Shown here: piece after piece, positions 6,024 through 17,663 of the stretch
How positions within the stretch are numbered: the stretch's first letter is position 1
Layout: each line of letters opens with the position of its first letter
DNA from: Phycicoccus jejuensis
Lineage (GTDB): Bacteria; Actinomycetota; Actinomycetes; Actinomycetales; Dermatophilaceae
DNA length: 33,203 bases
Assembly: GCF_000720925.1 (NCBI RefSeq)
Contig: NZ_JOEE01000015.1
Coordinates: 1-33,203 of the forward strand
Direction: 5' to 3'
Program-made: the position numbers and the translations under genes
Notes under the pieces: generated by a model
Databases searched by the model: none
What the model was told of the DNA's origin: nothing
Seen by the model: the letters and a program-made list of their open reading frames with translations, nothing else

Positions 6024-6572
6024 ATGCTTTTCCCGTACCGCATGATGGTGGTCGGTCATGGCCGACACGGCAAAGACACTGCCGCTGAAATTCTGCGCGA
6101 TCACTATGGCGCGACGTTCGTCTCGTCGAGCTGGTTCATGGCAGAGCGTGTCGTGTTTCCGTACTTCTGCGAGAAGTACCCCGGCAAGTATGCCTCGGCG
6201 CAAGAGTGCTACGATGACCGCGCGAACGAGCGCTCGACGTGGTTCAATCTGATCGCCGAGAGCAATGCGGCCGATCTCACGAAGTTGGGTCGCGCGATCT
6301 TCGCGAAGTACGATCTCTACGTCGGCAACAGGAACGCCCGCGAGTTTCACGCCCTGCGGAACGCCAGCGTGTTCGACATCTCGATTTGGATCGACGCGTG
6401 CGAGCGCCTCGAATACCGCGAGCCCCGCACGTCCCTCACAATCGAGCCCTGGATGTGCGATTACGTGGTCGACAACAACGGCACCCAGGCCGATCTCAAG
6501 CGGAACCTGGCCTCGCTGATGCACGGATTGCGGACCAAGTCCTTGATCCAAAAGGGATTGTCAGCAGCGTGA
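6024..6572 (+). CDS. Deoxynucleoside monophosphate kinase-like protein
   Basis: 182 aa with an N-terminal P-loop GHGRHGKDT (11-19) right after a β-strand (MMVVG), the signature of phage dNMP kinases of the T4 gp1 type. These phosphorylate dNMPs to dNDPs to feed phage DNA synthesis. The middle is helical and Tyr/Phe-rich, and the C-terminal part carries the variable lid region. It lies in the replication-side operon, three bases after the previous stop. The ribosome site is weak; ATG at 6042 or 6045 is an alternative start. Another P-loop nucleotide kinase is possible. Confidence 0.7.
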   Translation: MLFPYRMMVVGHGRHGKDTAAEILRDHYGATFVSSSWFMAERVVFPYFCEKYPGKYASAQECYDDRANERSTWFNLIAESNAADLTKLGRAIFAKYDLYVGNRNAREFHALRNASVFDISIWIDACERLEYREPRTSLTIEPWMCDYVVDNNGTQADLKRNLASLMHGLRTKSLIQKGLSAA

Positions 6573-6610
6573 CCTGACAAGCCGGCCGAGGGAAGTTTGT
6601 GAGGGGAAAA

Positions 6611-6641
6611 AGTTGACGTTGGGATGTCAACTGCCTATTTT
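6611..6641 (+). promoter_or_regulatory. Strong promoter-like site with 22-bp operator dyad
   Basis: TTGACG (6613-6618), a 17-nt spacer and TATTTT (6636-6641) form the best sigma70-type promoter in the window. A perfect 7-8-7 inverted repeat, AGTTGAC (6611-6617) / GTCAACT (6626-6632), covers the -35 and spacer, as expected for a dimeric repressor. Confidence 0.7.
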
Positions 6642-6730
6642 CCCCATACGGACAAATGGGCGAGGGGCCGGAACGAGAGTTACCCGGCATCGCCTAGTCT
6701 GAACCGACCCCGGCCTTGGCCGACATTCCG

Positions 6731-6758
6731 AACCCCGGCGCTTCAGTGCGTCGGGGTT
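6731..6758 (+). promoter_or_regulatory. Leader hairpin, possible attenuator
   Basis: AACCCCGGCG (6731-6740) pairs with CGTCGGGGTT (6749-6758), ten pairs including one G·U, around an 8-nt loop. It lies between the promoter at 6611 and the gene at 6783 and has only a short interrupted T tract after it. It may attenuate transcription, or be a weak terminator for upstream transcripts. Confidence 0.5.
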
Positions 6759-6782
6759 TCGCGTTTCCACTAGGAGCCCGTC

Positions 6783-6968
6783 ATGGGATGCAACTGCGGA
6801 AAGCGCCGCGATCTCACGGCGCAGGCGATCAAGAACGTTCGCACCGGCAACTTCGACGCCGCTCGTCAGAACGCGCAACGCTTCGTGAAGACGTTGCAGC
6901 TCGACGCGCGCAACATCGCGCGCAGCGTGGGGCGCTCGACGCTGATGAAGCGCCCGCCTTCAAGGTGA
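6783..6968 (+). CDS. Small basic phage protein with CNCGKR N-terminus
   Basis: 61 aa behind AGGAG at 6772-6776. It begins MGCNCGKRRDL, a small Cys-containing basic motif seen at the start of several short phage proteins, and the rest is basic and helical (RSTLMKRPPSR at the end). First gene after the operator-controlled promoter; the Z-like gene follows two bases later. Function unknown. Confidence 0.65.
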   Translation: MGCNCGKRRDLTAQAIKNVRTGNFDAARQNAQRFVKTLQLDARNIARSVGRSTLMKRPPSR

Positions 6969-6969
6969 G

Positions 6970-7647
6970 ATGATGGCCGGTACGCAAACGAACTACACCG
7001 GCCCCACGAAGATATACCGCGCGTCACAGGGGCCGATGCCCGCGTCGGCATACACGCAGTCACATGGCGGCGTGATCTATGTCGACTTGACCGACGCGAT
7101 GAAGCGCCTCACCGTGGCGTTCAACGTGTACGGCGACGAGGTCAAACACCGCGCGCTCTACAACGCGATCAACAAGCTCGGCGACAAGCTGCTCACGGCT
7201 GTTCGTCGCGACCTCGTCCAAACGACGGGTGCGAAGTACGGACGCGTGATGAAAGCGGTTCACGCAGATCGCGCGCATCCCAATCGCCTGTTCTATCGCA
7301 TCGTTGCGAGCGACAAGGCGATGAAGGTGAGCGACTTCGCGCGGTCGCTGACGCCAGGCAAGAAGAACCCGAGCGCCAAGCCTTGGAATCGCTCGCAGCG
7401 CTTCAAGGGTGCGTTCGTTATCCGCTTCAAGAACGGTGCCACCGAGATCGTCAAGCGTATCGGGAAGCACAACAAGAGCGGCAAGATCAGAACATTGTGG
7501 GGTCCGATCATCCCGAAGGAAATGATCCGGCCCGGCAACCCGAGCACGTACCACATTGCTTCGGCGATCCCGACGCAGTTGGGGCCGGTGCTCATGCACG
7601 AACTCGAACAAGCCGTGATCCGCGCGAAAGCGGCGAGCGGCACATAA
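6970..7647 (+). CDS. Lambda gpZ-like minor tail/tail completion protein
   Basis: 225 aa. Residues about 36-215 show the gpZ pattern. A helical AxxxAINK...TAVRRDL segment is followed by an R/K-rich loop containing NRLFYRIVAS, then GAFVIRFKNG, then a short strand ending in GPIIPKEM. gpZ-type proteins finish the tail end that joins the head. AAGGTGAG precedes tandem ATG codons at 6970 and 6973, and 6973 has the better spacing. Finding a tail-completion gene here, 5 kb and an opposing operon away from the structural cluster and next to ParA, is unusual. Family call is moderate. Confidence 0.6.
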   Translation: MMAGTQTNYTGPTKIYRASQGPMPASAYTQSHGGVIYVDLTDAMKRLTVAFNVYGDEVKHRALYNAINKLGDKLLTAVRRDLVQTTGAKYGRVMKAVHADRAHPNRLFYRIVASDKAMKVSDFARSLTPGKKNPSAKPWNRSQRFKGAFVIRFKNGATEIVKRIGKHNKSGKIRTLWGPIIPKEMIRPGNPSTYHIASAIPTQLGPVLMHELEQAVIRAKAASGT

Positions 7648-7659
7648 CCGGAGACCCCC

Positions 7660-8307
7660 ATGAACATCCCGCATCTGGTATTCGTCGGCGCTGACAAAGG
7701 TGGCGTCGGCAAGACCATGCTGAGCCGCGCACTGCTCGGCTACTACGGTGCCAACGGCATCGACTTCCGCGCGTTCGACACGCAATCCCCGAGCGGCGGC
7801 CTGCAACGTTTCTTTCCTGGCCGCGCGCAGATCGTGGACATCACCAAGTCGACCGATCAGGTCAAGGTGTTCGACGACCTGGCATCGACCCAGGTGACCG
7901 TCGTCGACGTGTGCGCCGGTCTGTTGTCGCCCACGCTGAAGACGCTCGACGTTGTCGGCTTCTTCGACGCGGCGAAGCAGAACAAGCTGCGCATCACTGT
8001 GCTGCATGTCGTCGGTCCTGCGACGCAATCGCTCGACGAGATCAAGCCCGTGATGGCAGCGCTCGCAGGATCGAAGCACGTTGTGCTCGCGAACCATATC
8101 GACGACACCGCGTACGATGTACCGGCTGGCGCGCTCAACATTCCCCGGCTGGATGGGGAAGCGGCGAAGGCCGTCGACGCGGTCGCGCAACCGTTCCACG
8201 ACTTCATCGGAAGCCAGGCGTCCTTCGTGCTGCGCGGCTACACGCGAAGCTGGTTGAAGGACGTGTTCGCGCAGTTCGACGCTGCGCAGCTCAACAACCT
8301 GGCCTGA
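7660..8307 (+). CDS. Orphan ParA-like deviant Walker A ATPase
   Basis: 215 aa. The N-terminus carries the deviant Walker A motif DKGGVGKTMLSR with signature lysine K13 and catalytic K18/T19. D40 (FRAFDTQ) is in the A' position and D83 (VTVVDVCAG) in Walker B. ParA ATPases segregate plasmids or position cargo on nucleoid DNA. GGAG lies seven bases before the ATG. No ParB-like gene follows; the next 850 bp are the structured RNA region, which also contains GAACGA repeats and dyads that could act as a centromere. Plasmid-prophage maintenance is possible. Some phages carry single ParA genes of unknown use. Confidence 0.85.
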   Translation: MNIPHLVFVGADKGGVGKTMLSRALLGYYGANGIDFRAFDTQSPSGGLQRFFPGRAQIVDITKSTDQVKVFDDLASTQVTVVDVCAGLLSPTLKTLDVVGFFDAAKQNKLRITVLHVVGPATQSLDEIKPVMAALAGSKHVVLANHIDDTAYDVPAGALNIPRLDGEAAKAVDAVAQPFHDFIGSQASFVLRGYTRSWLKDVFAQFDAAQLNNLA

Positions 8308-8340
8308 TACACAGACAAGAGCCCCTCATGCCTCTGACCA

Positions 8341-9165
8341 TAAAGGCGTTGCCGTAGACCACGGCCGCGTGCGTCACGTGTGTTCAGGGCCATCCACTAT
8401 GCGCTAGGTCAGCGCCGTGTCGCGGATGGGCGCTATTCGGGGAATAGCAGGCAAGGTGAGGGCACCCGCCATATGAAGGTCGGTGCGGCCTCGCCATCCC
8501 CGTGCAATTCGATACCCCCTCTGAACGACTTTTCTCAGAACGAGAAAACGAAAATTCGCAGAACGAAAAACCAAAAATTCACGTTCTGCGAAACGAGCTG
8601 AGTGGCATGGATCAAGGGCGAGAGAACTGCGCTCACAGGGATCATCAGCTCATACCCCAAACGAGCTGTGCATCACCGTTATGAACGATGCGCTTCACGA
8701 TCCATGCCGCTCACCCAAACAGCACGCGTTGAGGCGCGTGGAGCCAAGCGATTGGCTCGCCAGGATACGAGCAGACGGGGGTCATGCTCTCCTGGCTCTG
8801 TGCGACCCGCGACGATGAGTAGATACGGCGCTGGCGGGAGCGACGTGTCGAATACCCCGTCGCGGGTCGCAACCCGTCCGCTCGCGCGAGCACGCGCACG
8901 CACGCGCGGAAAAATTTTTTTTCGAGAGCATGTTGGTTTTGGAGATCGCCAAAATCGCAGTTGGGCGGATTGATGACAGTGCGATCTCGTCAGTGCTCAA
9001 AAGCCACAATCGCCGAGGTATGCGCGGCCACTCGGCCGAAAACGCGGTGTGGCATTTCGATAAAAGTGCAACATGCCTCTAGGATCGCATTAGGCGCGCG
9101 CCCATGCGCTCAATCCGTCGCCCGGTATTTCGTACCATTGGGGCGGGTTGAGCGAATGAGCGGCG
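8341..9165 (+). ncRNA. Candidate giant structured non-coding RNA (ornate, GOLLD/ROOL-sized)
   Basis: No frame here has a ribosome site or protein-like composition, yet long stems fill the interval. They include: 8401-8405/8411-8415; GCTATTC 8432-8438/8442-8448; 8450-8470 (GGC+GGTG); AGGTC 8477-8481/8487-8491; GGATGG 8424-8429 with CCATCC 8494-8499 closing those three; 11 bp 8555-8565/8582-8592; 15 pairs 8599-8613/8699-8713 enclosing two hairpins; CACGCG 8723-8728/8735-8740; GAGCCAA 8741-8747/8752-8758 with a GCGA tetraloop; GCCAGG 8759-8764/8791-8796; 14 bp 8801-8814/8858-8871; GCATGTTG 8928-8935/9069-9076; a long hairpin 9107-9154. Loop 8980-8986 pairs with 9083-9089 as a pseudoknot. U·G pairs at 8603/8709 and 8480/8488 favour the + strand. 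Ends are estimates. Confidence 0.6.
8523..8592. repeat. GAACGA repeats and 11-bp dyad after parA
   Basis: GAACGA occurs at 8523, 8538 and 8561. TTCGCAGAACG (8555-8565) and CGTTCTGCGAA (8582-8592) form a perfect inverted repeat around an A-rich 16-nt spacer. They could be one stem of the putative structured RNA or a cis-acting partition site for the ParA encoded 220 bp upstream. Confidence 0.5.
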
Positions 9166-9181
9166 CGGAATTGGACGAAAA

Positions 9182-9218
9182 AAAACGCCGCTAAGGATCA
9201 ACTCCCTAGCGGCGTTTT
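9182..9218. terminator. Bidirectional terminator between the ncRNA region and the minus operon
   Basis: AAAACGCCGCTA (9182-9193) and TAGCGGCGTTTT (9207-9218) form a perfect 12-bp stem. On the minus strand it is followed by eight U; on the plus strand by four. It would stop the leftward small-gene operon and, less strongly, the rightward ncRNA. Confidence 0.9.
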
Positions 9219-9227
9219 CGGCTTAAA

Positions 9228-9249
9228 CCCTAGCGTCGCAACGCTAGGG
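9228..9249 (-). terminator. Second hairpin upstream of the minus-strand terminator
   Basis: CCCTAGCG (9228-9235) and CGCTAGGG (9242-9249) are a perfect 8-bp stem with a 6-nt loop, just before the main terminator in the minus direction. No U-run; it may stabilise the 3' end. Confidence 0.5.
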
Positions 9250-9254
9250 CAAAG

Positions 9255-9350
9255 CTATGGCGGTTCGTCGCACGAATCGCCCGCGCCGTTATCGGCGCAT
9301 GGCAAGCAAGCGAGGGCAAAGCACGTCATAGCAAAATCGCGGTTTGTCAT
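9255..9350 (-). CDS. 31-aa Cys-rich hypothetical protein, last gene of the minus operon
   Basis: ATG at 9350 lies four bases after the preceding stop, with AAGG nine bases upstream, and the frame ends six bases before the first terminal hairpin. The product has four Cys and an acidic C-terminus (DSCDEPP). The operon spacing supports translation; the small size keeps confidence moderate. No family. Confidence 0.4.
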   Translation of the reverse strand: MTNRDFAMTCFALACLPCADNGAGDSCDEPP

Positions 9351-9354
9351 CTCG

Positions 9355-9537
9355 TTAGGCCTTCTTCGCTTCTACCGCGCCAGTAATGCGCTTGTCAGAG
9401 TGATATCGCGACTCGCCATGCGTCATAACGTCAACCGGCTGTAGCGCGAGCGTTGAAACACGATTGGCAATCTCGCGCAAACCGATTGCGCCGATATGGT
9501 CGGCCAATCGGCCATCAATGTAAACAGTGGGATTCAT
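9355..9537 (-). CDS. 60-aa hypothetical protein downstream of ribozyme 1
   Basis: Starts at 9537 with the leader CGAAAGGTACTAACGCC, in which AAAGG is the ribosome site. The leader begins right after hammerhead ribozyme 1, so cleavage would leave this gene (and the 31-aa frame after it) as a separate mRNA with a 5'-OH end. Mixed α/β composition (TVYIDGRLADHIGAIGLREI near the start). No family recognised. Confidence 0.7.
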   Translation of the reverse strand: MNPTVYIDGRLADHIGAIGLREIANRVSTLALQPVDVMTHGESRYHSDKRITGAVEAKKA

Positions 9538-9558
9538 GGCGTTAGTACCTTTCGACTT

Positions 9559-9616
9559 GGACTCATCAGTGGCCGCGTAACGGCCAGACCGCGCTACCTG
9601 GCGCGCGGTTTCGTCC
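9559..9616 (-). ncRNA. Type II hammerhead ribozyme, copy 1
   Basis: Read 5'-3' on the minus strand: GGAC, GAAA, stem III CCGCGC/GCGCGG with an 8-nt loop, UC, stem I UGGCCG-UUACG-CGGCCA, CUGAUGA, GUCC. The GUCC and GGAC ends close stem II, so this is the type II permutation, and every core nucleotide of the hammerhead is present. Predicted cleavage follows the GUC, between plus positions 9587 and 9586. The first ribozyme G (9616) is the last base of the UAG stop of the upstream gene. Confidence 0.92.
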
Positions 9617-9888
9617 TAGTAGTAGCAATGGCGGAAAACGTAATTCCCGTTGTCGTCGCCCGTGAGATAGCCTCTAACGCGACAACCCGCGACGCTACAG
9701 ACAGCCGGAATGGAAAAATACGTGTCGGGCTCCCCCGTGACGTAAACAGTGCGGCGCATGTCGCCCGCCATGTTATCGAGTCGGCAGTTCTCGACCTTCG
9801 CCAATGTGGGGCCACCCATCCACACCGCAAACCACGCGGTTGATCCATCGGGCATATGTTCCGATTTGTCGGCGCGATACTTTTGCAT
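9616..9888 (-). CDS. 90-aa hypothetical protein ending on ribozyme 1
   Basis: Starts at 9888 behind AGAGGG, with the TGA of the previous gene lying between ribosome site and start, so translation is coupled. Contains a Cys/Gly-rich second half (VCSVAGCRVRGYLTGDDNG) and ends in HCYY. Its UAG stop shares a base with ribozyme 1. No family recognised; the β-rich composition suggests a small globular protein. Confidence 0.7.
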   Translation of the reverse strand: MQKYRADKSEHMPDGSTAWFAVWMGGPTLAKVENCRLDNMAGDMRRTVYVTGEPDTYFSIPAVCSVAGCRVRGYLTGDDNGNYVFRHCYY

Positions 9889-9891
9889 TGG

Positions 9892-10134
9892 TCAATCCCT
9901 CTCGATTAGCGCGGTATAGGTTCGGCAATCGCTCGCGAGAACGCCGAACTGCGCCGCGTCATGCCAGCGCATGAATCCCGCGTCGTCGCAGCTAACGATT
10001 GAACCGCCTAACCACGCGGCGAACTTGTCCGCTTGTGCAATTTCGGAATCTTCCATTCCGGAAGCGTCGCCATTGATGAAATACGACGCCCAATAGCTAG
10101 GCGCGGTCCCCGTGACAGTGTCGAAGGTTGCCAT
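9892..10134 (-). CDS. 80-aa acidic phage protein (DUF6926-like pattern)
   Basis: ATG at 10134 is preferred over an upstream ATG because AAGGG and the previous stop lie directly before it (AAGGGTTGAGCCAATG). The acidic protein has aromatic PSYWASYFINGDASGMED near the N-terminus and SDCRTYTAL near the end. This recalls a widespread family of short phage/plasmid proteins (DUF6926-type), though I cannot confirm it. Middle gene of the block between ribozymes 2 and 1. Confidence 0.65.
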   Translation of the reverse strand: MATFDTVTGTAPSYWASYFINGDASGMEDSEIAQADKFAAWLGGSIVSCDDAGFMRWHDAAQFGVLASDCRTYTALIERD

Positions 10135-10138
10135 TGGC

Positions 10139-10531
10139 TCAACCCTTCGCTTTCTTGACGCGCGCATAGTCGCCCGCGCTCTTAAAGTATGTGCCGTGAT
10201 AGGTTGCGCCGTTGATCGCGCGAACGGTTACCGGGACACGCTTTCCGCCAAAGTTGTCGCGGTACTCTCGACCAAACGACGCGGAGCCAAGCCTTTCCCC
10301 GTTCCACGTTGTGGCGGTATTGGTCTTTGCGTTGATATAGAGGAAATACCGTTCCGGTATGTCCCGCATAAACTCGAATAGCTCGACCTGGCCGCGCTCG
10401 TCATTGGTCGGCGGGTTGATATGGGGCGGCAGTTCGGAGGGATGATAGCTATTCGTTTTGCGTGCTTTCATCCACGCGTGCAAAGCCTCATCCCTGGCGC
10501 GGATGTCGGCGGCTTGTTCTGGCGTTAGCAT
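10139..10531 (-). CDS. 130-aa hypothetical protein downstream of ribozyme 2
   Basis: Starts at 10531 with the ribozyme-associated leader CGAAAGGTACTAACGCCA. The N-terminal half is helical and polar, with a HxxxLPPHINPP stretch. The C-terminal half is basic and β-rich (GGKRVPVTVRAINGATYHGT) and ends in KKAKG. It is the first gene of the block that ribozymes 2 and 1 would excise. No family recognised. Confidence 0.7.
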   Translation of the reverse strand: MLTPEQAADIRARDEALHAWMKARKTNSYHPSELPPHINPPTNDERGQVELFEFMRDIPERYFLYINAKTNTATTWNGERLGSASFGREYRDNFGGKRVPVTVRAINGATYHGTYFKSAGDYARVKKAKG

Positions 10532-10551
10532 TGGCGTTAGTACCTTTCGTT

Positions 10552-10604
10552 GGACTCATCAGTGGCCGCGTAACGGCCAGACCGCGCTAGGCGCGGTTTC
10601 GTCC
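10552..10604 (-). ncRNA. Type II hammerhead ribozyme, copy 2
   Basis: Same core as copy 1: GGAC-GAAA, stem III CCGCGC-CUA-GCGCGG, UC, stem I UGGCCG-UUACG-CGGCCA, CUGAUGA-GUCC. It differs from copy 1 only in the stem III loop (3 nt instead of 8). Predicted cleavage is between plus positions 10580 and 10579. Its first G (10604) is the last base of the upstream UAG stop. Confidence 0.93.
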
Positions 10605-10864
10605 TAGCGTTGCGATTCCAAGAATTTCGCTATGGTGTACGGTTCAACCGTCACTTTGACGTGGAGGCTGTAATCGTCATCAGCCCAAACCGTTGCGCAG
10701 TATCCGTAGATTGAGAGATAGCCCGGAGCAGTCATGTTACTTTCAACGTGACGCTTGATTACCTCCACGCCTCTATCAACAGTGAAAGCGAAGCTAGGAT
10801 TGAGACGAGTCAAGAGGTCTGCGACCTCGCGCACATTGCTGTGATTCCAATTGAGTGCAGGCAT
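10604..10864 (-). CDS. 86-aa hypothetical protein ending on ribozyme 2
   Basis: Starts at 10864 with GAAAGG eleven bases upstream in a leader resembling the others of this operon (ending ACGCCA). The protein is mixed α/β, with a central aromatic segment (YLSIYGYCATVWADDDYS). Its UAG stop overlaps ribozyme 2. No family recognised. It closes the block between ribozymes 3 and 2. Confidence 0.7.
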   Translation of the reverse strand: MPALNWNHSNVREVADLLTRLNPSFAFTVDRGVEVIKRHVESNMTAPGYLSIYGYCATVWADDDYSLHVKVTVEPYTIAKFLESQR

Positions 10865-10886
10865 TGGCGTGTTTTCCTTTCTAGGG

Positions 10887-11324
10887 TTAGCGGTGGTAAA
10901 TCCAACCGCGATAGACTTCGCAGTAAGCTTCGCTGAACGTCTTAGCGGCCTTGTGGAGCGCGTCGCCCGCGTCGCCTAAACCACGGTCCCAATAGCCAAC
11001 GCCGTGGCCTTGACGCGAAAACCAAAAGTCATGGCCCGCCTGCTCTTCGGAGTAGCCATGCGACTCGGCCAAGCGGTCGAGCCATTGCCGGACGAAACAG
11101 CCATCCGGCATGATGAAACCGAGAAACGAGTCGCAATCGCTCGCAATGTCGCGGATTGCTTCGCGCGTGAGTCTCTCGACTCCCAAATCATTCAACCGCG
11201 ACTCGTTGTCGTCGCCCGTGTCGCCATTGGTGAAAAACACGGCTTCTACGTATGCCTTCGCGAACGTTGAAAGCTTGTCGTAAGCACGCGGCGCGGGGGT
11301 ATCGTTCAAGACAAATTCAGGCAT
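10887..11324 (-). CDS. 145-aa conserved phage protein with GHDFW...GHG motif
   Basis: ATG at 11324 has AAGG and the previous TGA directly upstream; upstream in-frame ATGs lack this. The N-terminus recalls a common phage family (FAKAYVEAVFFT), followed by an acidic central region. The motif EEQAGHDFWFSRQGHGVGYW (about 97-116) is one I recognise from many small phage proteins of unknown function. Strongly acidic overall. Conservation of the His/Asp/Trp motif suggests a shared activity, but none is established to my knowledge. Confidence 0.75.
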   Translation of the reverse strand: MPEFVLNDTPAPRAYDKLSTFAKAYVEAVFFTNGDTGDDNESRLNDLGVERLTREAIRDIASDCDSFLGFIMPDGCFVRQWLDRLAESHGYSEEQAGHDFWFSRQGHGVGYWDRGLGDAGDALHKAAKTFSEAYCEVYRGWIYHR

Positions 11325-11328
11325 TGGC

Positions 11329-11739
11329 TCAACCTTCCAACTTGGCGCGAAGGTCGGCCATTTCGTTTGCGTGGTTACGTTCTGCGCGCTCGATTGCCGC
11401 GCGAGTGATCGCCTTAGCATCAAGCGTGTTCAAGCAATCCCACATATCTTTAGTGGCTTGCTCTGATGTGCGGCGCGCGTGTTCTAGATCGCAACGCGAA
11501 ACCACAGTTCCGAACACGTCAAATATGACGTAGCGAAAGCCTCGCTTGCGATTCTCAAAGTCGAGTGCATCGCTTGTGACGATTGCGAAAAGCAAACCGT
11601 TGTCGACGACTCGCGCGGAGATGACGCGCGACTTGTGGAATCGCAAATTATCGTCATCCACGTAATGTGTGCGACCGCAAAGGTTGCGTTGCGCGTTGGT
11701 CTTTGGATCATGCGATTCAGTGCGGAAAAGCGTAGTCAT
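11329..11739 (-). CDS. 136-aa hypothetical protein downstream of ribozyme 3
   Basis: The frame is open further upstream, but those codons read through ribozyme 3. ATG at 11739 is preceded by CGAAAGGAAACAACGCC, the standard leader. The protein has a β-rich middle (RGFRYVIFDVFGTVVSRCDL) and a long charged C-terminal helix (AAIERAERNHANEMADLRAK) that may form a coiled coil. First gene of the block between ribozymes 3 and 2. No family recognised. Confidence 0.7.
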   Translation of the reverse strand: MTTLFRTESHDPKTNAQRNLCGRTHYVDDDNLRFHKSRVISARVVDNGLLFAIVTSDALDFENRKRGFRYVIFDVFGTVVSRCDLEHARRTSEQATKDMWDCLNTLDAKAITRAAIERAERNHANEMADLRAKLEG

Positions 11740-11760
11740 GGCGTTGTTTCCTTTCGACTT

Positions 11761-11813
11761 GGACTCATCAGTGGCCGCGTGACGGCCAGACCGCGCTAGG
11801 CGCGGTTTCGTCC
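11761..11813 (-). ncRNA. Type II hammerhead ribozyme, copy 3
   Basis: GGAC-GAAA, stem III CCGCGC-CUA-GCGCGG, UC, stem I UGGCCG-UCACG-CGGCCA, CUGAUGA-GUCC. The only change from copy 2 is one base in the stem I loop. Predicted cleavage is between plus positions 11789 and 11788. Its first G (11813) is again the last base of the upstream UAG stop. Confidence 0.93.
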
Positions 11814-11989
11814 TATTTGTCAGGTGACACATACGACACGCTAGGCGTGCGAAAGCCTTTCACGTTGTGCGAAGTGTAGGAGTCGCGTCGGTTCATTTCA
11901 CAACCGATAGCGGCAAAGGCGATAACGATACCGATTGAAACTGCGACGCAAACCGCGTCGCGCAGTGCTGCAAGGTATGCGCGGACCAT
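11813..11989 (-). CDS. 58-aa single-pass membrane protein ending on ribozyme 3
   Basis: ATG at 11989 has GAGGG eight bases upstream and overlaps the preceding stop as TAATG. One hydrophobic segment (about residues 8-28, AALRDAVCVAVSIGIVIAFA) precedes a polar tail. The stop UAG overlaps ribozyme 3. A longer frame to 12022 exists but lacks a ribosome site. No family recognised. Confidence 0.65.
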   Translation of the reverse strand: MVRAYLAALRDAVCVAVSIGIVIAFAAIGCEMNRRDSYTSHNVKGFRTPSVSYVSPDK

Positions 11990-12087
11990 TAGCGTGCCCT
12001 CGCGATGCAGAACGAAAAGCAAAACCGGCCAATGCGGATAAACCGCAAGCCGCCGACTCGTTTTGTGCTGAAATTGATTGCGTTCAT
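11989..12087 (-). CDS. 32-aa basic peptide
   Basis: A short frame, MNAINFSTKRVGG..., fills the gap between its neighbours exactly. It starts five bases after the upstream stop and its TAA overlaps the next ATG. The peptide is very basic (eight Arg/Lys) with a Phe/Cys-rich end. The ribosome site is weak (GGTAG), so it probably depends on coupling. No family. Confidence 0.45.
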   Translation of the reverse strand: MNAINFSTKRVGGLRFIRIGRFCFSFCIARAR

Positions 12088-12092
12088 GGTGT

Positions 12093-12350
12093 TCACGCTA
12101 CCGGACGGGATTGGTCGGCGGAAACATTGCACGAAACGACGCGGTAGAAGTCTCGGCTGTAGCGCGGGCGATCATTTCCGCGCACCGAAGAAAAGGCGAG
12201 GCGACGATACATTGCGTCGAAAGCTTCGCTAGGGTCGCGTAGCCAAAGGCGGGCGATCCAATCGCACCCATTGAGCGTGCAACGAAAGCGAATGTCATAG
12301 GCCTTGCGACGCGGTGGCGTTGGCATTGGGCGAAAATTCAATTCGGTCAT
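12093..12350 (-). CDS. 85-aa hypothetical protein, first securely placed gene of the minus operon
   Basis: ATG at 12350 carries the exact 20-nt leader CGAAAGGACAAACGCCAATG (12348-12367), also found before the gene at 3039. The protein is basic and aromatic, with PRRKAYDIRFRCTLNGC near the start and CDWIARLWLRDP after it. The operator/promoter at 12396-12430 lies 46 bp upstream. No family recognised. Confidence 0.65.
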   Translation of the reverse strand: MTELNFRPMPTPPRRKAYDIRFRCTLNGCDWIARLWLRDPSEAFDAMYRRLAFSSVRGNDRPRYSRDFYRVVSCNVSADQSRPVA

Positions 12351-12395
12351 TGGCGTTTGTCCTTTCGAGCGTGTCGCCCCCGCGTGTGCGGTGGC

Positions 12396-12430
12396 AGGTG
12401 TGTAAGGTAGCACACCTAACGCATACAGCA
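12396..12430 (-). promoter_or_regulatory. Putative promoter and 22-bp operator of the minus operon
   Basis: A perfect 7-8-7 inverted repeat, AGGTGTG (12396-12402) / CACACCT (12411-12417), has the same geometry as the operator at 6611-6632 but another sequence. On the minus strand it spans TGCTACCTT, an extended -10-like element, with TTGCTG 16 nt upstream as a weak -35. Confidence 0.5.
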
Positions 12431-12435
12431 AGCGT

Positions 12436-12621
12436 CTAGTTCGCCCCTAATGCCTGTATTCGTTGGCTTTCTTGCGTGTTGCGCGCTCGCTTAGCGCGCT
12501 CCGACATGCCACGCGCGCCAGCGTCGCGCCTTACGAGGCATGCAATGCGCGCATGCAAAGCAAGCCGCGTGCCACGCTCCGCGCTATCGCGCTGTAATAG
12601 AGCGTGATGAGCAAGAAACAC
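12436..12621 (-). CDS. Doubtful 61-aa basic protein upstream of the minus-operon promoter
   Basis: An open frame with ATG at 12621, no clear ribosome site, and an Arg/Ala/His-rich product. Its C-terminal 24 residues (GMSERAKRARNTQESQRIQA and on) look protein-like. It lies upstream of the operator at 12396, so it would need its own promoter. It may be spurious; otherwise 12436-12675 holds only GC-rich palindromic words. Confidence 0.25.
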   Translation of the reverse strand: MFLAHHALLQRDSAERGTRLALHARIACLVRRDAGARGMSERAKRARNTQESQRIQALGAN

Positions 12622-12675
12622 CGCGATATCAGAGACTTGCTCGCGTTTGTAACAAACCGTGATCTCGGCCGCGCC

Positions 12676-12743
12676 GACCCACCCCCTGGGGTGTGGGTCC
12701 CTGTCGCCACACCCCCTCCCACCGGGGGCAGTCGCCGCCCCCG
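12676..12743 (+). promoter_or_regulatory. Overlapping hairpins upstream of the packaging operon
   Basis: GACCCA...TGGGTC with CCCC/GGGG (12676-12699) competes with a perfect 9-bp pair GGGGTGTGG (12688-12696) / CCACACCCC (12707-12715). A further hairpin, CGGGGGC (12723-12729) / GCCCCCG (12737-12743), follows. Mutually exclusive stems in front of the late genes suggest an attenuator. Since lambda cos lies just upstream of Nu1, a cos site here is the alternative. Confidence 0.45.
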
Positions 12744-12859
12744 AAAGTCGGCAACGTTTTAGCGAATTTGCTCACTCTTGATCGCACGGGTCGCCCCCGC
12801 GAGCTATGCGCCTCACGCGTGAGAAACGTCACCTAACACCCCCTTTGGAGCCCCCGAAC

Positions 12860-13243
12860 ATGGCAAACACGTCGCATTCGCCTCGTCGCCGGGGCGGTGT
12901 TGACGCTTGCGTCAACGAACTACCGAAGACCATCAAGATCGGTGCCTACGATTGGACGATCTGCATCCGAGATGGAGCGGACGACAAGTACGGTCAAGCC
13001 GATTTCGAGTACAGCCAGATCAACATCTGGCCGAGAAACCTAACGAGCCCCGGTCACGGCGTCGGAATAGTGCTGCATGAATGCCTGCACGTCATATTCG
13101 ACAACCACGGGCTCGGCAGACTGAAGCGGGATAAAGAGGATCGTGAAGAGCAGATCGTTCTCGGCTTCGAGGCGGGCCTGGTCTCGCTGTTCCGCGACAA
13201 TCCGAAGCTGCTCGTCTGGATGAGGCGGTGGCTTCATGGCTGA
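12860..13243 (+). CDS. HExxH putative metallopeptidase-like phage protein
   Basis: 127 aa from ATG 12860 with GGAG nine bases upstream; codons before it lack a ribosome site. HECLH at 73-77 is a zincin HExxH motif inside a helix, followed by RDKEDREEQIV (90-100), where a glutamate could be the third zinc ligand. Phage proteins with this layout are common near terminase genes, and their substrates are generally unknown. Its stop overlaps the terminase small subunit start by eight bases, so it is the first gene of the late operon. Confidence 0.7.
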   Translation: MANTSHSPRRRGGVDACVNELPKTIKIGAYDWTICIRDGADDKYGQADFEYSQINIWPRNLTSPGHGVGIVLHECLHVIFDNHGLGRLKRDKEDREEQIVLGFEAGLVSLFRDNPKLLVWMRRWLHG

Positions 13244-13877
13244 ACAGTACCCGCGAAAGCTCCCCGCAAAGCAGCTCGCGATACTGTTTGGTGTGAGTGA
13301 ACAACGAATCTCGCAGCTCAAGCGCAAAGGGAAGCTAAACCCCGACAGCGCGAACCTCTACGACGTGCAAGAGGCCAAGCAGTTGCGCGGTTTCCAGATG
13401 AGCGAGCACGGCGTACGCGTCGTCGCACAAACATACGGCAACGGCACCGGCAAGATCGCGCCGCCGAAGGTGACGCCGATGAATGCCGACGTGGTTCTCT
13501 CCCCCGAGGATCGCGAGGCACTCGGTATCGAGCCCAATGAGCAGATCGCGCCGTCGCCAAACAGTCACTTCGTGGCGGCAAGCCGCATCACGGAGCTGCG
13601 CGAGCAGAAGATCAAGGCCGAGATCGAGCGTATCGAGACGCGGGCCAAGAGAGAACGGGGCGAGCTGGTCGAAAGAGCGAAGGTGCAATCGTCGTTCATT
13701 GAGGCCGGAGCGCGGATCGCGGCGATCCTTCAGAACTTGCCTGCCGAGATCGCTTCGATCTTTGCGGACCCCGACAAGAAAGCCGAGGTCCGGCTGAAGG
13801 TGCAAACGCGCGTCGATCAGGCGCAGCACACGCTCTACACGTCAATGCGCGACTACGGAGAAGATGATGCTGGCTGA
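13236..13877 (+). CDS. terS: Terminase small subunit, Nu1-like
   Basis: 213 aa. Residues about 7-35 (KLPAKQLAILFGVSEQRISQ) are a winged-HTH typical of Nu1-type DNA recognition subunits. A long charged helix (about 115-150) and a helical C-terminal region (about 155-205) probably mediate oligomerisation and contact with the large subunit. It should bind the cos/packaging region and load the motor. It overlaps the upstream HExxH gene and, by 14 bases, the large subunit gene. Confidence 0.8.
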   Translation: MAEQYPRKLPAKQLAILFGVSEQRISQLKRKGKLNPDSANLYDVQEAKQLRGFQMSEHGVRVVAQTYGNGTGKIAPPKVTPMNADVVLSPEDREALGIEPNEQIAPSPNSHFVAASRITELREQKIKAEIERIETRAKRERGELVERAKVQSSFIEAGARIAAILQNLPAEIASIFADPDKKAEVRLKVQTRVDQAQHTLYTSMRDYGEDDAG

Positions 13878-15726
13878 CCCATTATTCGCAGGGCTGGCCG
13901 AAGGATTGAAGCCGAAGCCTCGGCTGAAGCTGTCTGAGTGGGCGGAAGCGAACCTAGTGCTGCCGCCTGAACGATCCGCGAGCCCCGGCCCATATCGCAT
14001 CGGCGACGCGGTCTTCCAACGCGGCATGATGGACGCGATCACCGATCCCGACAATGAGGACATCGTCTTCATCACGTCGTCCCAGGTCGGCAAGACGACC
14101 ATCCTTGTCGCGGCGCAAGGCTACTACTGCGAGGCGGAGCCGTGCGCGCAGCTCTCGGCGTGGCCTACGCAAGACCTGGCCGACAAGTACCAAGAAGAGT
14201 CGTTCGATACCACGGTGAGAGATTCGCCGAAGTGGAGAGCGGCGATGACTGGCAGCACCGAATATAAGGGCGGCCAGATCAATTTCGTCGGCGCGAACAC
14301 GCCGAACAAGCTCGCGATGCGGCCCATCCGTGTCGTTACGGGCGACGAGATCGACCGATGGCCCCTCAGCTCGTCGAAGGAAGGTTCGCCGGTCGAACTC
14401 GCCAAGAAGCGACGCACGACATACCACAACCGCAAAGGCCTGTGGGTGTCGACGCCGGTTCACGAAGACACCAGCGTCATCGTCCAGCTCTTCAAAGAGA
14501 CGCGGCAACACTACTTCCTCGTTACCTGCCCCGATTGCTCCGCCAAGCAAGTGCTGAAGTGGGACAACATCGTCTACAAGAAGGGGCAGGAGGAAGACGC
14601 GCTCTATCACTGCGACGACTGCGGTGCGCTGTGGACCGAGATGACAAAGCGCCGTCTCGTTCGCGAGGGCGAATGGCATCAAGTCGGCACCGTGATCGGC
14701 ACGCAGAAGGATGGCACGCCGATCCGACTGGCGACCCCGTTCAAATGCTTCAAGGTAGACGCTGGCGTGACGCCTGCGCGCGAGAAGATCGGTTTCTGGA
14801 TCAACGAGCTGTATTCGCCGTGGGTCTCGATGCGAGAGATCGCGAAGGCCTGGTCAGACTCGGAGGGCAACCCCGAGAAAGAACAGACCTTCTACAACAC
14901 GCGTCTCGGTCTTCCGTATCGCGGCGACATTTCGAGCTTCGCGGACCCTGAGAACTTGAAGTCGAGGCGTGAGAAGTATGATCCTGAGATCGTGCCGAAG
15001 CGCGCGGCGCTGCTCACAGCGGCCGTCGACGTGCAGGACGACCGCCTCGAAGTGCTGGTCGTGGCCTGGGGCAAGGGCGATGAGTGCTGGCTTCTGAAGC
15101 ATCACGTCATCCAGCTCGGCCCGAACACGGACGAAGCGTGGGACGAACTCGCGAAGTTCCTCGAAAGCGGCTTCAAGCACGAAGGCGCGGCAGGGGAGAC
15201 GCTCGGCATCTTCTCCGCCACTATCGACTCGGGCTCGGGCGCGCACACGCAGAAGGTCTACGACTTCAGCAACAAATGGCTGTTGGTCGGACGACGCTGG
15301 TACGCGCACAAGGGCGTGCCCGGCGACAAGAAGCCAGTCTGGATTAAGTCGGAGCAGCGCTTCAAGGACAAGACGAAGCTGTTTCTCGTCGGCACCTACG
15401 ACGCGAAGGCGACCATCTACACGCGATACGCAAACGCGAAGGTGGGGCCTGGCTACGTGCATATCCATGAGGGCATCTCGGACGACAAGATCGACCAGAT
15501 GACCGCTGAGCGCGCGGAGACGGACTACAAAGATGGTTTCCCCGTTCGAACGTGGACGAAGCCTCGGCATCGTCGAAACGAGATGCTCGATCTCATGGTC
15601 TACAACTACGCGGTTCGGTGTTCGGTGAACATCGACATGGATCATTGGATCAAGCGGCTCAACACCCCCAAAGAACAACAGCCGAAGCAGCTCAACGCTG
15701 CCGACATCGGCAAGCTGTTCAAATAG
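13864..15726 (+). CDS. terL: Terminase large subunit, GpA family
   Basis: 620 aa, full length for the family. The ATPase domain has SSQVGKTT (72-79, Walker A) and VVTGDEID (157-164, Walker B). A CPDC (222-225) ... CDDC (250-253) zinc knuckle follows, as in other GpA-type terminases. The nuclease domain starts near residue 380 with AAVDVQDDRLEVLVVAWG. It powers DNA translocation into the prohead and cuts the concatemer; GpA-family enzymes classically cut at cos. GGAG sits just before the tandem ATGs, and 13867 is an alternative start. Confidence 0.95.
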   Translation: MMLADPLFAGLAEGLKPKPRLKLSEWAEANLVLPPERSASPGPYRIGDAVFQRGMMDAITDPDNEDIVFITSSQVGKTTILVAAQGYYCEAEPCAQLSAWPTQDLADKYQEESFDTTVRDSPKWRAAMTGSTEYKGGQINFVGANTPNKLAMRPIRVVTGDEIDRWPLSSSKEGSPVELAKKRRTTYHNRKGLWVSTPVHEDTSVIVQLFKETRQHYFLVTCPDCSAKQVLKWDNIVYKKGQEEDALYHCDDCGALWTEMTKRRLVREGEWHQVGTVIGTQKDGTPIRLATPFKCFKVDAGVTPAREKIGFWINELYSPWVSMREIAKAWSDSEGNPEKEQTFYNTRLGLPYRGDISSFADPENLKSRREKYDPEIVPKRAALLTAAVDVQDDRLEVLVVAWGKGDECWLLKHHVIQLGPNTDEAWDELAKFLESGFKHEGAAGETLGIFSATIDSGSGAHTQKVYDFSNKWLLVGRRWYAHKGVPGDKKPVWIKSEQRFKDKTKLFLVGTYDAKATIYTRYANAKVGPGYVHIHEGISDDKIDQMTAERAETDYKDGFPVRTWTKPRHRRNEMLDLMVYNYAVRCSVNIDMDHWIKRLNTPKEQQPKQLNAADIGKLFK

Positions 15727-15733
15727 CTCCCTC

Positions 15734-15782
15734 GGAGGGCAGACATGGCTAACACACCGGGTGCCTGCCCTCCGGGGCAGGC
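15734..15782 (+). promoter_or_regulatory. Alternative hairpins controlling gpW translation start
   Basis: The ribosome site GGAGGGCAG (15734-15742) is perfectly complementary over 9 bp to CTGCCCTCC (15765-15773) inside the gene, which would bury the SD and loop out the ATG. That same segment also forms an exclusive 8-bp hairpin, GCCTGCCC (15763-15770) / GGGCAGGC (15775-15782), which would free the SD. Confidence 0.5.
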
Positions 15783-16056
15783 GCAGAGCTTCAACGCGGA
15801 CCTACCCGACTGCGTGGCGCAGGTCTCCGCGATCTATCAGGCGTACGTCGCTGTCGTGGCCGGAAAGAGCCGCGTCGTCGTGCGCTTCAACGACCGATGG
15901 ACTGAGTACGCAAGGCCCGACGCGCCTGCGCTGCTCATGCTCTATCAGACACTCTACGCACAATGCCCTGGCGCGCAAGCAGCCGGGCTGCCGGACCTCA
16001 ACCCGAACCTTCGAGTTCAGCGCGGACGACCGGCGAGGGGACATATCCGATGGTAG
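15745..16056 (+). CDS. gpW-like head-tail joining protein
   Basis: 103 aa. The central part matches the gpW pattern: a helix containing QVSAIYQAYVAVVAG, then two β-strands (SRVVVRFNDRWTEYAR) and a second helix (APALLMLYQTLYAQ). Lambda gpW is a small protein that binds the portal to close the head. Gene order terminase - gpW - portal is exactly lambda-like. The C-terminus extends past the core by about 25 residues. Translation may be limited by the hairpins at its start. Its end overlaps the portal start. Confidence 0.8.
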   Translation: MANTPGACPPGQAQSFNADLPDCVAQVSAIYQAYVAVVAGKSRVVVRFNDRWTEYARPDAPALLMLYQTLYAQCPGAQAAGLPDLNPNLRVQRGRPARGHIRW

Positions 16057-17663
16057 AACTGGTGCTAGAAGACGGTGGTCGCCTAGACCACGAACATCTG
16101 CGCCCCGGCTTCGGCTTCAGCTACTCGCCGAGCCTCACTTCGGCCGACGTGGTCGCCTGGCGCAGCAAAGACCGAACGGCTGCCGCAGCGCGCGATGCGT
16201 CGCGTACTAACCCGTATGGCGCGAGCGCAAAGCGGGCGACCGTCGACAGCGTCGTCGGTCTGAATTTCAAGCTTCAGTACATGCCGAACGCCGAGCTGCT
16301 CGGCGTGAGCGAGGAAGAGGCCCTCGAATACGCCGACATGGTCGAGAACATGTGGGATGTAGCGGCCAACTCATCGCTGTTCCATCTCGACGCGCAGCGC
16401 ATGCAGACCTTCTCCGGCCTGATGCGGACGGCCTACGCTGGCTACTACATCGACGGCGAAGTGCTTGCCACCATAGAGTGGAAAGAGGCGTTCAACGGCG
16501 ACCGCACCTGTCTGCATCTGCTCGACCCGCAACGGCTGTCTGACCCGCGAGGCGCTATCGACTACACCGGCAAGCGCCGGATGGGCGTCGACCGCGACAA
16601 GCACGGTGCGCCGACAGCCTACAACATCCGCGAATGCACGATAAGCGACGTGGCGATCTGGGGGCCTGCGGGCTCACAGTTCGCCTGGCGCAAGGTGCCT
16701 CGCTACACGCCGTGGGGACGGCTGAACGTCATCCACTTCTTCGAGCACGACGCGCCGGACATGACGCGAGGCATGACCTCGTTCACGACCGCGTTGCTGC
16801 CGATGCGGCTGCTTCAGGACTACAACATCACCGAACTGGAAAGCGCGGCGATCCGCGCGACCTATGCGGCGGTGATTGAAAGCGATCTGAAGTACGAAGA
16901 CGCGATGAAGGTCATCGGTGCCGAGCACCGGAAGGCTATCGAGGAAAACCCCGTCCTCGACTTCACGCTCCGCATGATGGCGGACAAGGCCGACTTCTAC
17001 AAAGGCCAGGAGTTCAAGTTCGGCAAGAGCAAAGTCGCTCACCTGCTACCGAATGAGAAACTGCACATGGTGCAGGGTAATCAGTCGGTCTCGGCGCTGA
17101 AGGACTTCAACTCCGTCAACCTCTACACGCTCGCTTCGGCGCTCGGTGTCGACTACGCAACGCTGACGAAGGACTTCTCATCGACGAACTACAGCGGCGC
17201 TCGCGCGGCGTTGTTCGACGTGTGGCGGTCCTACGAAGTGCGGCGCTCGGCGTTCATCGACGCCGTCCCGGTGCCGTTCTTCGGGGCCTGGCTGGAAGAG
17301 CAGATCGCGCTTCGCGGCACGATCCCGATGCTCGGCAAGAAGTCGTTCTACGAAGTGCGTGACGCGATCTGCCGTTGCACGTTCGAGACGTGGTCGAAGC
17401 CGCGCCTTGACCCGCTGAAGGAAAACCAGGCGGATCAGGTGCTCTACGACATGGGCGCGCTCGATCTCAAGAGCATCTGCGCGGCCGATGGCCGTGACTA
17501 CCGCAAGGTGCTGGTGCAGCGCGCCGCAGAGAAGGCACTTCTGAACAAGCTCGGGCTGAAGCCCGAAGACATCAACCCCGAACTGAACGCCAACAAGATC
17601 AAAGCGAACGCCGCAAAGGGCGAAAACGCAGGTCAAGAAGGCGGAGGAACAGGAGAAGCATAG
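16050..17663 (+). CDS. Portal protein, lambda gpB-like
   Basis: 537 aa from ATG 16050, with GAGGGG nine bases upstream; earlier in-frame codons overlap gpW. Typical portal features are NPYGASAKRATVDSVVGLNF early, then the DLPRIHLV-like region replaced here by FAWRKVPRYTPWGRLNVIHF. Next comes RGMTSFTTALLPMRLLQDYN and a C-terminal clip-to-stem region with LASALGVDYATLTKDFSSTN. Portals form the dodecameric ring at the packaging vertex. Its last codon overlaps the GTG of the protease gene. Confidence 0.92.
   Translation: MVELVLEDGGRLDHEHLRPGFGFSYSPSLTSADVVAWRSKDRTAAAARDASRTNPYGASAKRATVDSVVGLNFKLQYMPNAELLGVSEEEALEYADMVENMWDVAANSSLFHLDAQRMQTFSGLMRTAYAGYYIDGEVLATIEWKEAFNGDRTCLHLLDPQRLSDPRGAIDYTGKRRMGVDRDKHGAPTAYNIRECTISDVAIWGPAGSQFAWRKVPRYTPWGRLNVIHFFEHDAPDMTRGMTSFTTALLPMRLLQDYNITELESAAIRATYAAVIESDLKYEDAMKVIGAEHRKAIEENPVLDFTLRMMADKADFYKGQEFKFGKSKVAHLLPNEKLHMVQGNQSVSALKDFNSVNLYTLASALGVDYATLTKDFSSTNYSGARAALFDVWRSYEVRRSAFIDAVPVPFFGAWLEEQIALRGTIPMLGKKSFYEVRDAICRCTFETWSKPRLDPLKENQADQVLYDMGALDLKSICAADGRDYRKVLVQRAAEKALLNKLGLKPEDINPELNANKIKANAAKGENAGQEGGGTGEA

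What the first reader, a model, noticed from the sequence alone, without database searches (positions are those of the whole stretch)
9559..11813. Three type II hammerhead ribozymes punctuate one small-gene operon
Copies at 9559-9616, 10552-10604 and 11761-11813 (minus) each contain the complete hammerhead core. It reads GGAC-GAAA, 6-bp stem III, GUC, 6-bp stem I, CUGAUGA, GUCC, permuted as type II. Stems are identical; every difference lies in a loop. They would cut one leftward transcript into blocks of three, three, three and two genes (counting two tiny frames). Type II hammerheads have been reported in bacterial and phage DNA, but serial use as intercistronic cutters in one operon would be a distinct RNA-processing system.
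Basis: partly seen in the sequence, partly recalled or inferred. Interest (0 to 1): 0.95.

Follow-up and report, generated by a model that had tools for sequence, protein, structure and literature searches.

The report
Self-cutting RNA punctuating a phage operon
A bacterial virus carries three copies of a predicted self-cutting RNA, each fitted between the stop codon of one small gene and the start of the next, which would likely cut one long message into four shorter ones; serial use of such RNAs in phages was already reported in 2011, but this compact form recurs in about 200 other sequences, often shares bases with the stop codon, and in the samples checked is mostly missed by the standard RNA-family catalogue.

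Summary
A covariance model built from 54 motifs of other contigs, window excluded, scores them 67.5-71.3 bits; Rfam's type II model scores them 27.5-30.1, below its cut-off of 37. The comparison adds: (1) in each window copy the A and G of the upstream UAG are ribozyme bases; in 196 of 571 motifs elsewhere the stop codon likewise reaches base -1; (2) the window belongs to a compact class (17-nt hairpin I; 325 motifs, 210 loci) with U at loop position 2, often UNANG, a nearly invariant A before stem II and no loop-tail pseudoknot; loop bases covary with the bases flanking stem II, suggesting a tertiary contact, on few exceptions; (3) one 7.5-kb locus holds 12 motifs, and cultured Streptomyces phages such as R4 carry arrays of the longer class. 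Likely role: autocatalytic mRNA punctuation leaving hairpin-capped ends. No cleavage was tested here.

The parts
11761..11813 (-). Hammerhead ribozyme R1, compact type II; predicted cut between 11789 and 11788
   Evidence: Rfam 27.5 bits; own model 70.7 bits
10552..10604 (-). Hammerhead ribozyme R2, compact type II; predicted cut between 10580 and 10579
   Evidence: Rfam 30.1 bits; 71.3 bits
9559..9616 (-). Hammerhead ribozyme R3, compact type II; predicted cut between 9587 and 9586
   Evidence: Rfam 28.8 bits; 67.5 bits
11813..11815 (-). UAG stop codon of g3; its A and G are base -1 and the first stem II base of R1
10604..10606 (-). UAG stop codon of g6, overlapping R2 in the same way
9616..9618 (-). 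UAG stop codon of g9, overlapping R3 in the same way
12093..12350 (-). g1, 85 aa, no family match
11989..12087 (-). g2, 32 aa, tiny frame, uncertain as a gene; not searched against families
11813..11989 (-). g3, 58 aa, no family match
11329..11739 (-). g4, 136 aa, no family match; ATG 21 nt after stem II of R1, with GAAAGG upstream
10887..11324 (-). g5, 145 aa, phrog_1915 (unknown function, E 9.4e-27)
10604..10864 (-). g6, 86 aa, no family match; own GAAAGG leader without a ribozyme
10139..10531 (-). g7, 130 aa, no confident family match (best PHROG E 0.05); ATG 20 nt after stem II of R2
9892..10134 (-). g8, 80 aa, DUF6926-like (26.9 bits, cut-off 27)
9616..9888 (-). g9, 90 aa, no family match
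9355..9537 (-). g10, 60 aa, no family match; ATG 21 nt after stem II of R3
9255..9350 (-). g11, 31 aa, tiny frame, uncertain as a gene; not searched against families
9176..9222 (-). Stretch holding a terminator-like hairpin of 17 pairs whose outer G-U and A-U pairs run into a U tract; end of the operon
   Evidence: fold -28.5 kcal/mol; the consensus scan did not list it

Best explanation
Three compact type II hammerhead motifs, each overlapping the UAG stop codon of one small phage gene and ending 20-21 bases before the next start codon, are predicted to cut one leftward transcript into four messages, each likely protected by a hairpin at every newly made end. Shown by sequence and models: the complete core, three perfect stems, the stop-to-start placement, the 3/3/3/2 gene blocks, and membership of a class of motifs found mainly in viral contigs. 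Inferred: that RNA polymerase makes one transcript through all blocks, that each copy cuts in the cell, and that cutting matters. In the type II permutation the cut lies between two closed hairpins, so the upstream piece would keep its stop codon and end in hairpin III with a 2',3'-cyclic phosphate, and the downstream piece would begin with hairpin I and a 5'-OH, then the ribosome site. From general knowledge of bacterial RNA decay (recalled, not tested here), such ends would resist 3' exonucleases and 5'-monophosphate-dependent decay, so the ribozymes would give each block its own stability and translation without a host processing enzyme, much as RNase III sites do in T7 early mRNA (recalled).
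For: Exact three-copy match, none expected by chance. Model R1, built from 54 motifs of other contigs, scores the copies 71.3, 70.7 and 67.5 bits (E 1.3e-19 to 1.9e-18, rough calibration); the next window hit has 14.3 bits. In those 54 motifs the stems covary: 99.8% of 848 cells paired, covariation score 0.850 against 0.159 in shuffles (inflated, since motifs were picked for paired stems). The descriptor finds 633 motifs in 369 loci and 1 in the same sequences read backwards. Placement in 571 motifs with flanks (317 loci): the stop of the longest nearby upstream ORF starts at -9 to -1 in 391 and at -3 or -2 in 196; a start codon with a Shine-Dalgarno-like site lies 10-35 nt downstream in 435. 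126 of 285 neighbouring pairs of motifs (not deduplicated) are spanned by a single ORF. By annotators' gene borders in Hank144 and Loofah, 19 of 21 motifs overlap genes by at most 10 nt. Hairpins are stable alone: -10.6 (I) and -11.3 or -13.5 (III) kcal/mol in the window; medians -8.5 and -11.0 in 325 relatives. Published precedent for cleavage in cells of another triple.
Against: No cleavage, transcript or RNA end was measured. All three copies fall below Rfam's gathering score. The scan found no sigma-70-like promoter upstream of g1; its one minus-strand site (10471-10442) lies inside g7, so the single transcript is inferred from gene order, gaps and the end hairpin. g5/g6 are separated by 22 nt with an own ribosome site but no ribozyme, so ribozymes do not mark every translation restart. 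Of the 571 motifs, 115 have the upstream stop further than 9 nt away, 23 have it inside the motif and 42 have no ORF found; 80 have no start with a Shine-Dalgarno-like site within 60 nt. In R4's annotation only 1 of 9 motifs is intergenic by the <=10-nt rule, although three of the overlapping genes are 84-102-bp frames lying on the motifs. The wild host is unknown. Near-identity of the three copies could reflect recent copying rather than selection at each site.
Confidence: 0.72

Rival explanations
1. The copies are a selfish or drifting intergenic repeat: a short hairpin element copied between genes and tolerated there, possibly self-cleaving but without benefit to the phage.
For: The copies align with each other over 77-85 nt at 88-92% identity, from stop codon to start codon, as recent copying would give; seven of the nine neighbouring proteins searched have no confident family match.
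Against: In other contigs stems differ in sequence yet stay paired, base -1 is A in 523 of 571, and most motifs lie just behind a stop codon and before a start.
Confidence: 0.12
2. The ribozymes make circular or spliced RNAs: the 3' half of one copy pairs with the 5' half of the next, and each gene block is re-ligated into a circle.
For: In the window all three stem II strands are identical, so cross-pairing is possible; complementary halves flank each inner block (sequence).
Against: In other contigs, of 176 neighbouring pairs in which both motifs have their own 4-bp stem II, cross-pairing over 4 bp fails in 65 and is possible in 111; the scans fixed stem II, which favours cross-pairing. Perreault et al. 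report that they could not detect spliced or circular products.
Confidence: 0.05
3. The stem-loops act as plain hairpins (RNase III sites, decay barriers or attenuators of translation) and catalysis is not used.
For: The stems are strong, and the three copies' complete core could be a relic.
Against: All three copies keep every core base. Conservation of GUC and CUGAUGA in relatives is no argument, because the scans fixed them; but base -1 and loop I were free, and A(-1) with loop U is nearly invariant in the compact class. Over the whole viral collection the GGAC pattern with C before it gave 2 stretches, while without that condition it passed the limit of 120. Plain hairpins would not need this.
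Confidence: 0.06

Closest known systems
Clustered hammerheads in prophages (Perreault et al. 2011, PMC3088659; passages, section 7)
   Same: Several hammerheads, including type II, flank single genes or short blocks; processing of long phage RNAs proposed; an A. tumefaciens triple cuts in E. coli.
   Different: Their type II consensus includes a putative loop I-tail pseudoknot; the window's class shows none. The words 'stop codon' do not occur in that main text. Figures and supplements were not seen.
Rfam RF02276 Hammerhead_II
   Same: All three copies align to it over positions 1-66.
   Different: 27.5-30.1 bits against a gathering score of 37. In eight array loci 1 of 41 descriptor motifs with a 17-nt hairpin I reaches it, and 3 of 11 others.
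Hammerhead arrays of R4-like Streptomyces phages (R4, Hank144, Loofah)
   Same: 9, 9 and 12 type II motifs (Rfam and own model together) along a leftward stretch of mostly small genes.
   Different: Hairpin I is 21-24 nt in the 15 motifs that also meet the strict descriptor, and 27 hits pass Rfam's cut-off: the longer class. Cultured hosts exist.
RNase III processing of T7 early mRNA (recalled, no call)
   Same: Cuts a polycistronic phage RNA between genes and leaves hairpin ends.
   Different: Needs a host protein; leaves 5'-phosphate and 3'-OH.

Membership tests
Type II hammerhead ribozyme | Conserved core CUGANGA, GAAA and NUH cleavage triplet | tested here: met
   CUGAUGA, GAAA, GUC in all three copies
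Type II hammerhead ribozyme | Three stems around the core with stems I and III closed by loops and stem II open | tested here: met
Type II hammerhead ribozyme | Self-cleavage to 2',3'-cyclic phosphate and 5'-OH | not testable with these tools
   No wet experiment; core and stems are intact
Type II hammerhead ribozyme | Loop I-tail pseudoknot (common, not defining: about 40% of hammerheads likely use one, PMC3088659) | tested here: not met
   Longest Watson-Crick run between loop I and tail in the window copies is 2, 3 and 2
Rfam RF02276 (annotation criterion only) | Score at or above the gathering cut-off of 37 bits | tested here: not met
   27.5-30.1 bits
Compact UNANG class proposed here | 17-nt hairpin I, loop UNANG, A before stem II | tested here: met
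   Loops UUACG and UCACG and A(-1) in all three, and A after stem II. Relatives with a 17-nt hairpin: UNANG in 192 of 325 against a mean of 13 in shuffled loops, A(-1) in 319 of 325
Serial intercistronic hammerhead arrays of phages | Two or more copies on one strand between genes of one operon | tested here: met
   relatives
Serial intercistronic hammerhead arrays of phages | Cleavage of the transcript in cells | not testable with these tools
   Published for another triple

The most novel reading that the evidence does not exclude
The stop codon is a working part of the ribozyme: the A of UAG docks with the U of loop I, so a ribosome sitting on the stop codon holds the ribozyme off and cutting follows translation termination. 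Phages would thus use a translation-gated, protein-free way of cutting operons, gene by gene, through a compact hammerhead class that the standard catalogue mostly misses.
Probability: 0.22. Interest if true: 0.85.

Novelty: new variant of a known kind. Interest (0 to 1): 0.56.

Why it matters
The role of phage hammerheads is an open question: a 2017 review (PMC6155905, passages) calls the roles of prokaryotic hammerheads open, and Perreault et al. left the tertiary contact of pseudoknot-free hammerheads unexplained (section 7). The comparison here proposes a specific contact, a specific overlap with the stop codon, and a simple reason why type II would suit operons: this permutation leaves an intact hairpin on both new ends. 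Arrays in cultured Streptomyces phages such as R4 make serial processing testable with ordinary 5'-OH end mapping.

Tried and rejected
Claim that serial use is new: rejected on PMC3088659. Rfam family search of the own genome gave no match at E<=0.001 and rang in none of 14 control genomes, so it could not serve as an absence test; a pattern search then found exactly the three copies, and model R1 found them in the own genome and nothing in the other 97 of 98 genomes, with stricter filters. Phage collection: no near match for 10.7 kb of structural genes, only short matches inside g5 for the operon, and terminase relatives all below 60% identity. Arrays of L099 (near mode), L077 and L203 (distant mode) have no match there.

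A fresh test of the rare contact state, fixed in the notebook before the scan (loop A expected where U precedes and follows stem II), was nearly empty: 0 stretches for the first pattern, one already counted (L176) for the second; a third pattern, with C before stem II, gave L081 (already counted) and L093. L093 has a 15-nt hairpin I, outside the class of the prediction; its first loop base is A with C before and U after stem II, which agrees but was not counted. So that covariation rests on few exceptions.

Loop I-tail pseudoknot in the compact class: rejected (17-nt hairpins 12.0% against 12.5% with shuffled partners; 18-nt 12.7% against 14.7%).

Rows dropped before counts: loci of the same phage (L001, L002, L123-L125, L129, L140); duplicates (633 to 594); motifs over 75 nt or with stem II under 3 bp (to 578); motifs without 70 nt on both sides (to 571). 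The three main viral scans stopped at the limit of 120 stretches and fixed stem II, GTC and CTGATGAG, so frequencies are not those of nature.
Full report
1. Observation. An exact pattern finds three in the window and none in 100 shuffles. Unconstrained folding returns the hammerhead for each. The implied cuts are 11789/11788, 10580/10579 and 9587/9586.

2. Operon. Eleven leftward frames run from 12350 to 9255. Junctions without a ribozyme have gaps of -1 to 5 nt, except g5-g6 (22 nt); the three ribozyme junctions have gaps of 72-78 nt. The order is g1-g3, R1, g4-g6, R2, g7-g9, R3, g10-g11, then a 17-pair hairpin running into U. g2 and g11 are tiny and may not be genes. The only minus-strand promoter-like site found (10471-10442) lies inside g7. 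Of nine proteins searched, g5 matches phrog_1915 (unknown function) and g8 a near-threshold DUF6926; the other seven have no confident match; PADLOC gives none.

3. The cassette. In every copy the upstream gene ends in UAG, whose A is the base before stem II and whose G is the first base of stem II; the next ATG starts 21, 20 and 21 nt after stem II, behind GAAAGG. The copies align over 77-85 nt, 88-92% identical, that is from stop codon to start codon: the repeated unit is the linker itself.

4. Known model. Rfam RF02276 gives 30.1, 28.8 and 27.5 bits in a search of 3.1 kb; its gathering score is 37. In eight array loci with 52 descriptor motifs, four reach that score: 1 of 41 with a 17-nt hairpin I and 3 of 11 others.

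5. Relatives. Three scans of viral contigs, each stopped at 120 stretches, and one of genome contigs (17 stretches) gave 369 loci after dropping the window's own phage. The descriptor finds 633 motifs there and 1 in the reversed control. A model of 54 of them, window excluded, scores the window copies 67.5-71.3 bits. Arrays: the 7.5-kb locus L099 carries 12 motifs by descriptor and by model; L203, L084 and L351 have runs of 9 on one strand; whole records of these four give 11, 9, 10 and 9 model hits under stricter filters. The 63-kb record of the window's own phage has the same three copies and no more (G099).

6. Placement. In 571 compact motifs with flanks, from 317 loci (11 of them genome contigs), the upstream stop starts at -3 or -2 in 196 and at -9 to -1 in 391, further upstream in 115, inside the motif in 23, and no ORF was found in 42; 435 have a start with a Shine-Dalgarno-like site 10-35 nt downstream, 80 none within 60 nt. 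The ORF chosen was the longest ending nearby, a crude rule. A precedes stem II in 191 of 196 motifs whose stop codon reaches that base, in 275 of 305 whose stop ends earlier, and in 523 of all 571. So the A belongs to the ribozyme, and the stop codon is fitted onto it.

7. Two classes. Motifs whose hairpin I is not 17 or 18 nt (167) show loop I-tail pairing of at least 4 bp in 61% against 30% with shuffled partners, as in the published consensus. The 325 motifs with a 17-nt hairpin (210 loci) do not (12.0% against 12.5%) but have U at loop position 2 in 318, UNANG in 192 (shuffles: mean 13, largest 24) and A(-1) in 319. Coupling: U with A(-1) 318, neither 6, A without U 1, U without A 0; after removal of hairpins at least 80% alike, 253 and 5 (Fisher p 1e-10). 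The exceptions lie in 7 contigs, two of them with the same hairpins; in 6 of 7 the base after stem II is U. In the 18-nt class U-A holds in 74 of 79, A with U(-1) in 3, and two motifs break the rule. Loop position 6 goes with the base after stem II, counted by contigs: U with A in 36 and with U in 1; A with U in 9, with A in 11, with C or G in 3; G with any base, mostly A (129) (p 1.5e-4 for U/A against A/U). A caution: in 15 of the 17 listed A-U motifs base -1 can also pair with that U and lengthen stem II. This suits a docking of loop I on the open end of stem II, but rests on few exceptions and related phages, and the planned fresh test was nearly empty. The window copies have the commonest state.

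8. Mechanism. The cut of a type II hammerhead lies between two closed hairpins. The upstream message would keep its stop codon and end in hairpin III; the downstream one would begin with hairpin I, then the ribosome site. I infer end protection and block-by-block stability. A ribosome on the stop codon would cover stem II's first strand and GAAA (recalled footprint), which suggests, but does not show, gating by translation termination.

9. Against circles. If halves of neighbouring copies paired, stem II would be kept complementary between neighbours; it is not in 65 of 176 pairs. In the window it is, because the copies are identical.

10. Cultured relatives. L277 is Streptomyces phage Hank144; 139 Streptomyces phage records match its array region at least in part. 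R4, Hank144 and Loofah carry 9, 9 and 12 motifs by Rfam or R1; 3, 8 and 4 of these also meet the strict descriptor, with hairpin I of 21-24 nt. By annotated genes 20 of 30 overlap coding sequence by at most 10 nt: Hank144 8 of 9, Loofah 11 of 12, R4 1 of 9. L081 is Xanthomonas phage Xp15, with one motif between its first two annotated genes.

11. Literature. Nine answered paper searches and passages of four papers (one section) showed serial phage hammerheads as known; in what I saw there was nothing on stop-codon overlap or on a UNANG class. Figures and supplements, among them the 2011 alignment figures, were not seen, so either may be in print. The phrase 'type II hammerhead' occurs in two held papers; most subscription papers are not held.

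12. Verdict. Real, correctly described, of a known kind; a compact variant with a testable contact and stop-codon overlap.

Noticed in passing
window 6498-16068; L129, L140, L001, L002: The same phage, 99.9-100% identical where compared, lies in a 63-kb contig of a Streptomyces iakyrus assembly, in an Eggerthellaceae MAG from roe deer jejunum, in an IMG/VR contig of 63 kb and in the window's own 4-Mb genome. It may be a phage that travels as a contaminant, so the host suggested by any of these assemblies is doubtful.
   Followed up: partly
L380 1763-1846, 4126-4218, 7074-7175 (phage R4): Tiny annotated genes gp60.1, gp67.1 and gp75.1 lie on top of predicted hammerheads, so they are probably annotation artefacts.
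   Followed up: partly
window 7660-8307: A 215-aa protein with a weak ParA/MinD-type nucleotide-binding match (19.9 bits, below the Pfam cut-off of 25.4) sits beside the operon; possibly a partition-like protein.
   Followed up: no
L008 4072-4128, L107 9341-9391: Rfam type III hammerhead hits of about 31 bits, below the cut-off of 48.5, lie in or next to type II arrays; they may be mixed or permuted copies.
   Followed up: no
L128 (Halorarius litoreus), L141, L136, L126: Type II motifs also occur in an archaeal genome and in contigs of Sciscionella, Lentzea and a Melainabacteria MAG; the last three share loop A with U before stem II.
   Followed up: partly
window 11788-11808, plus strand: The antisense of a ribozyme stem scores as a terminator-like hairpin on the opposite strand.
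   Followed up: no
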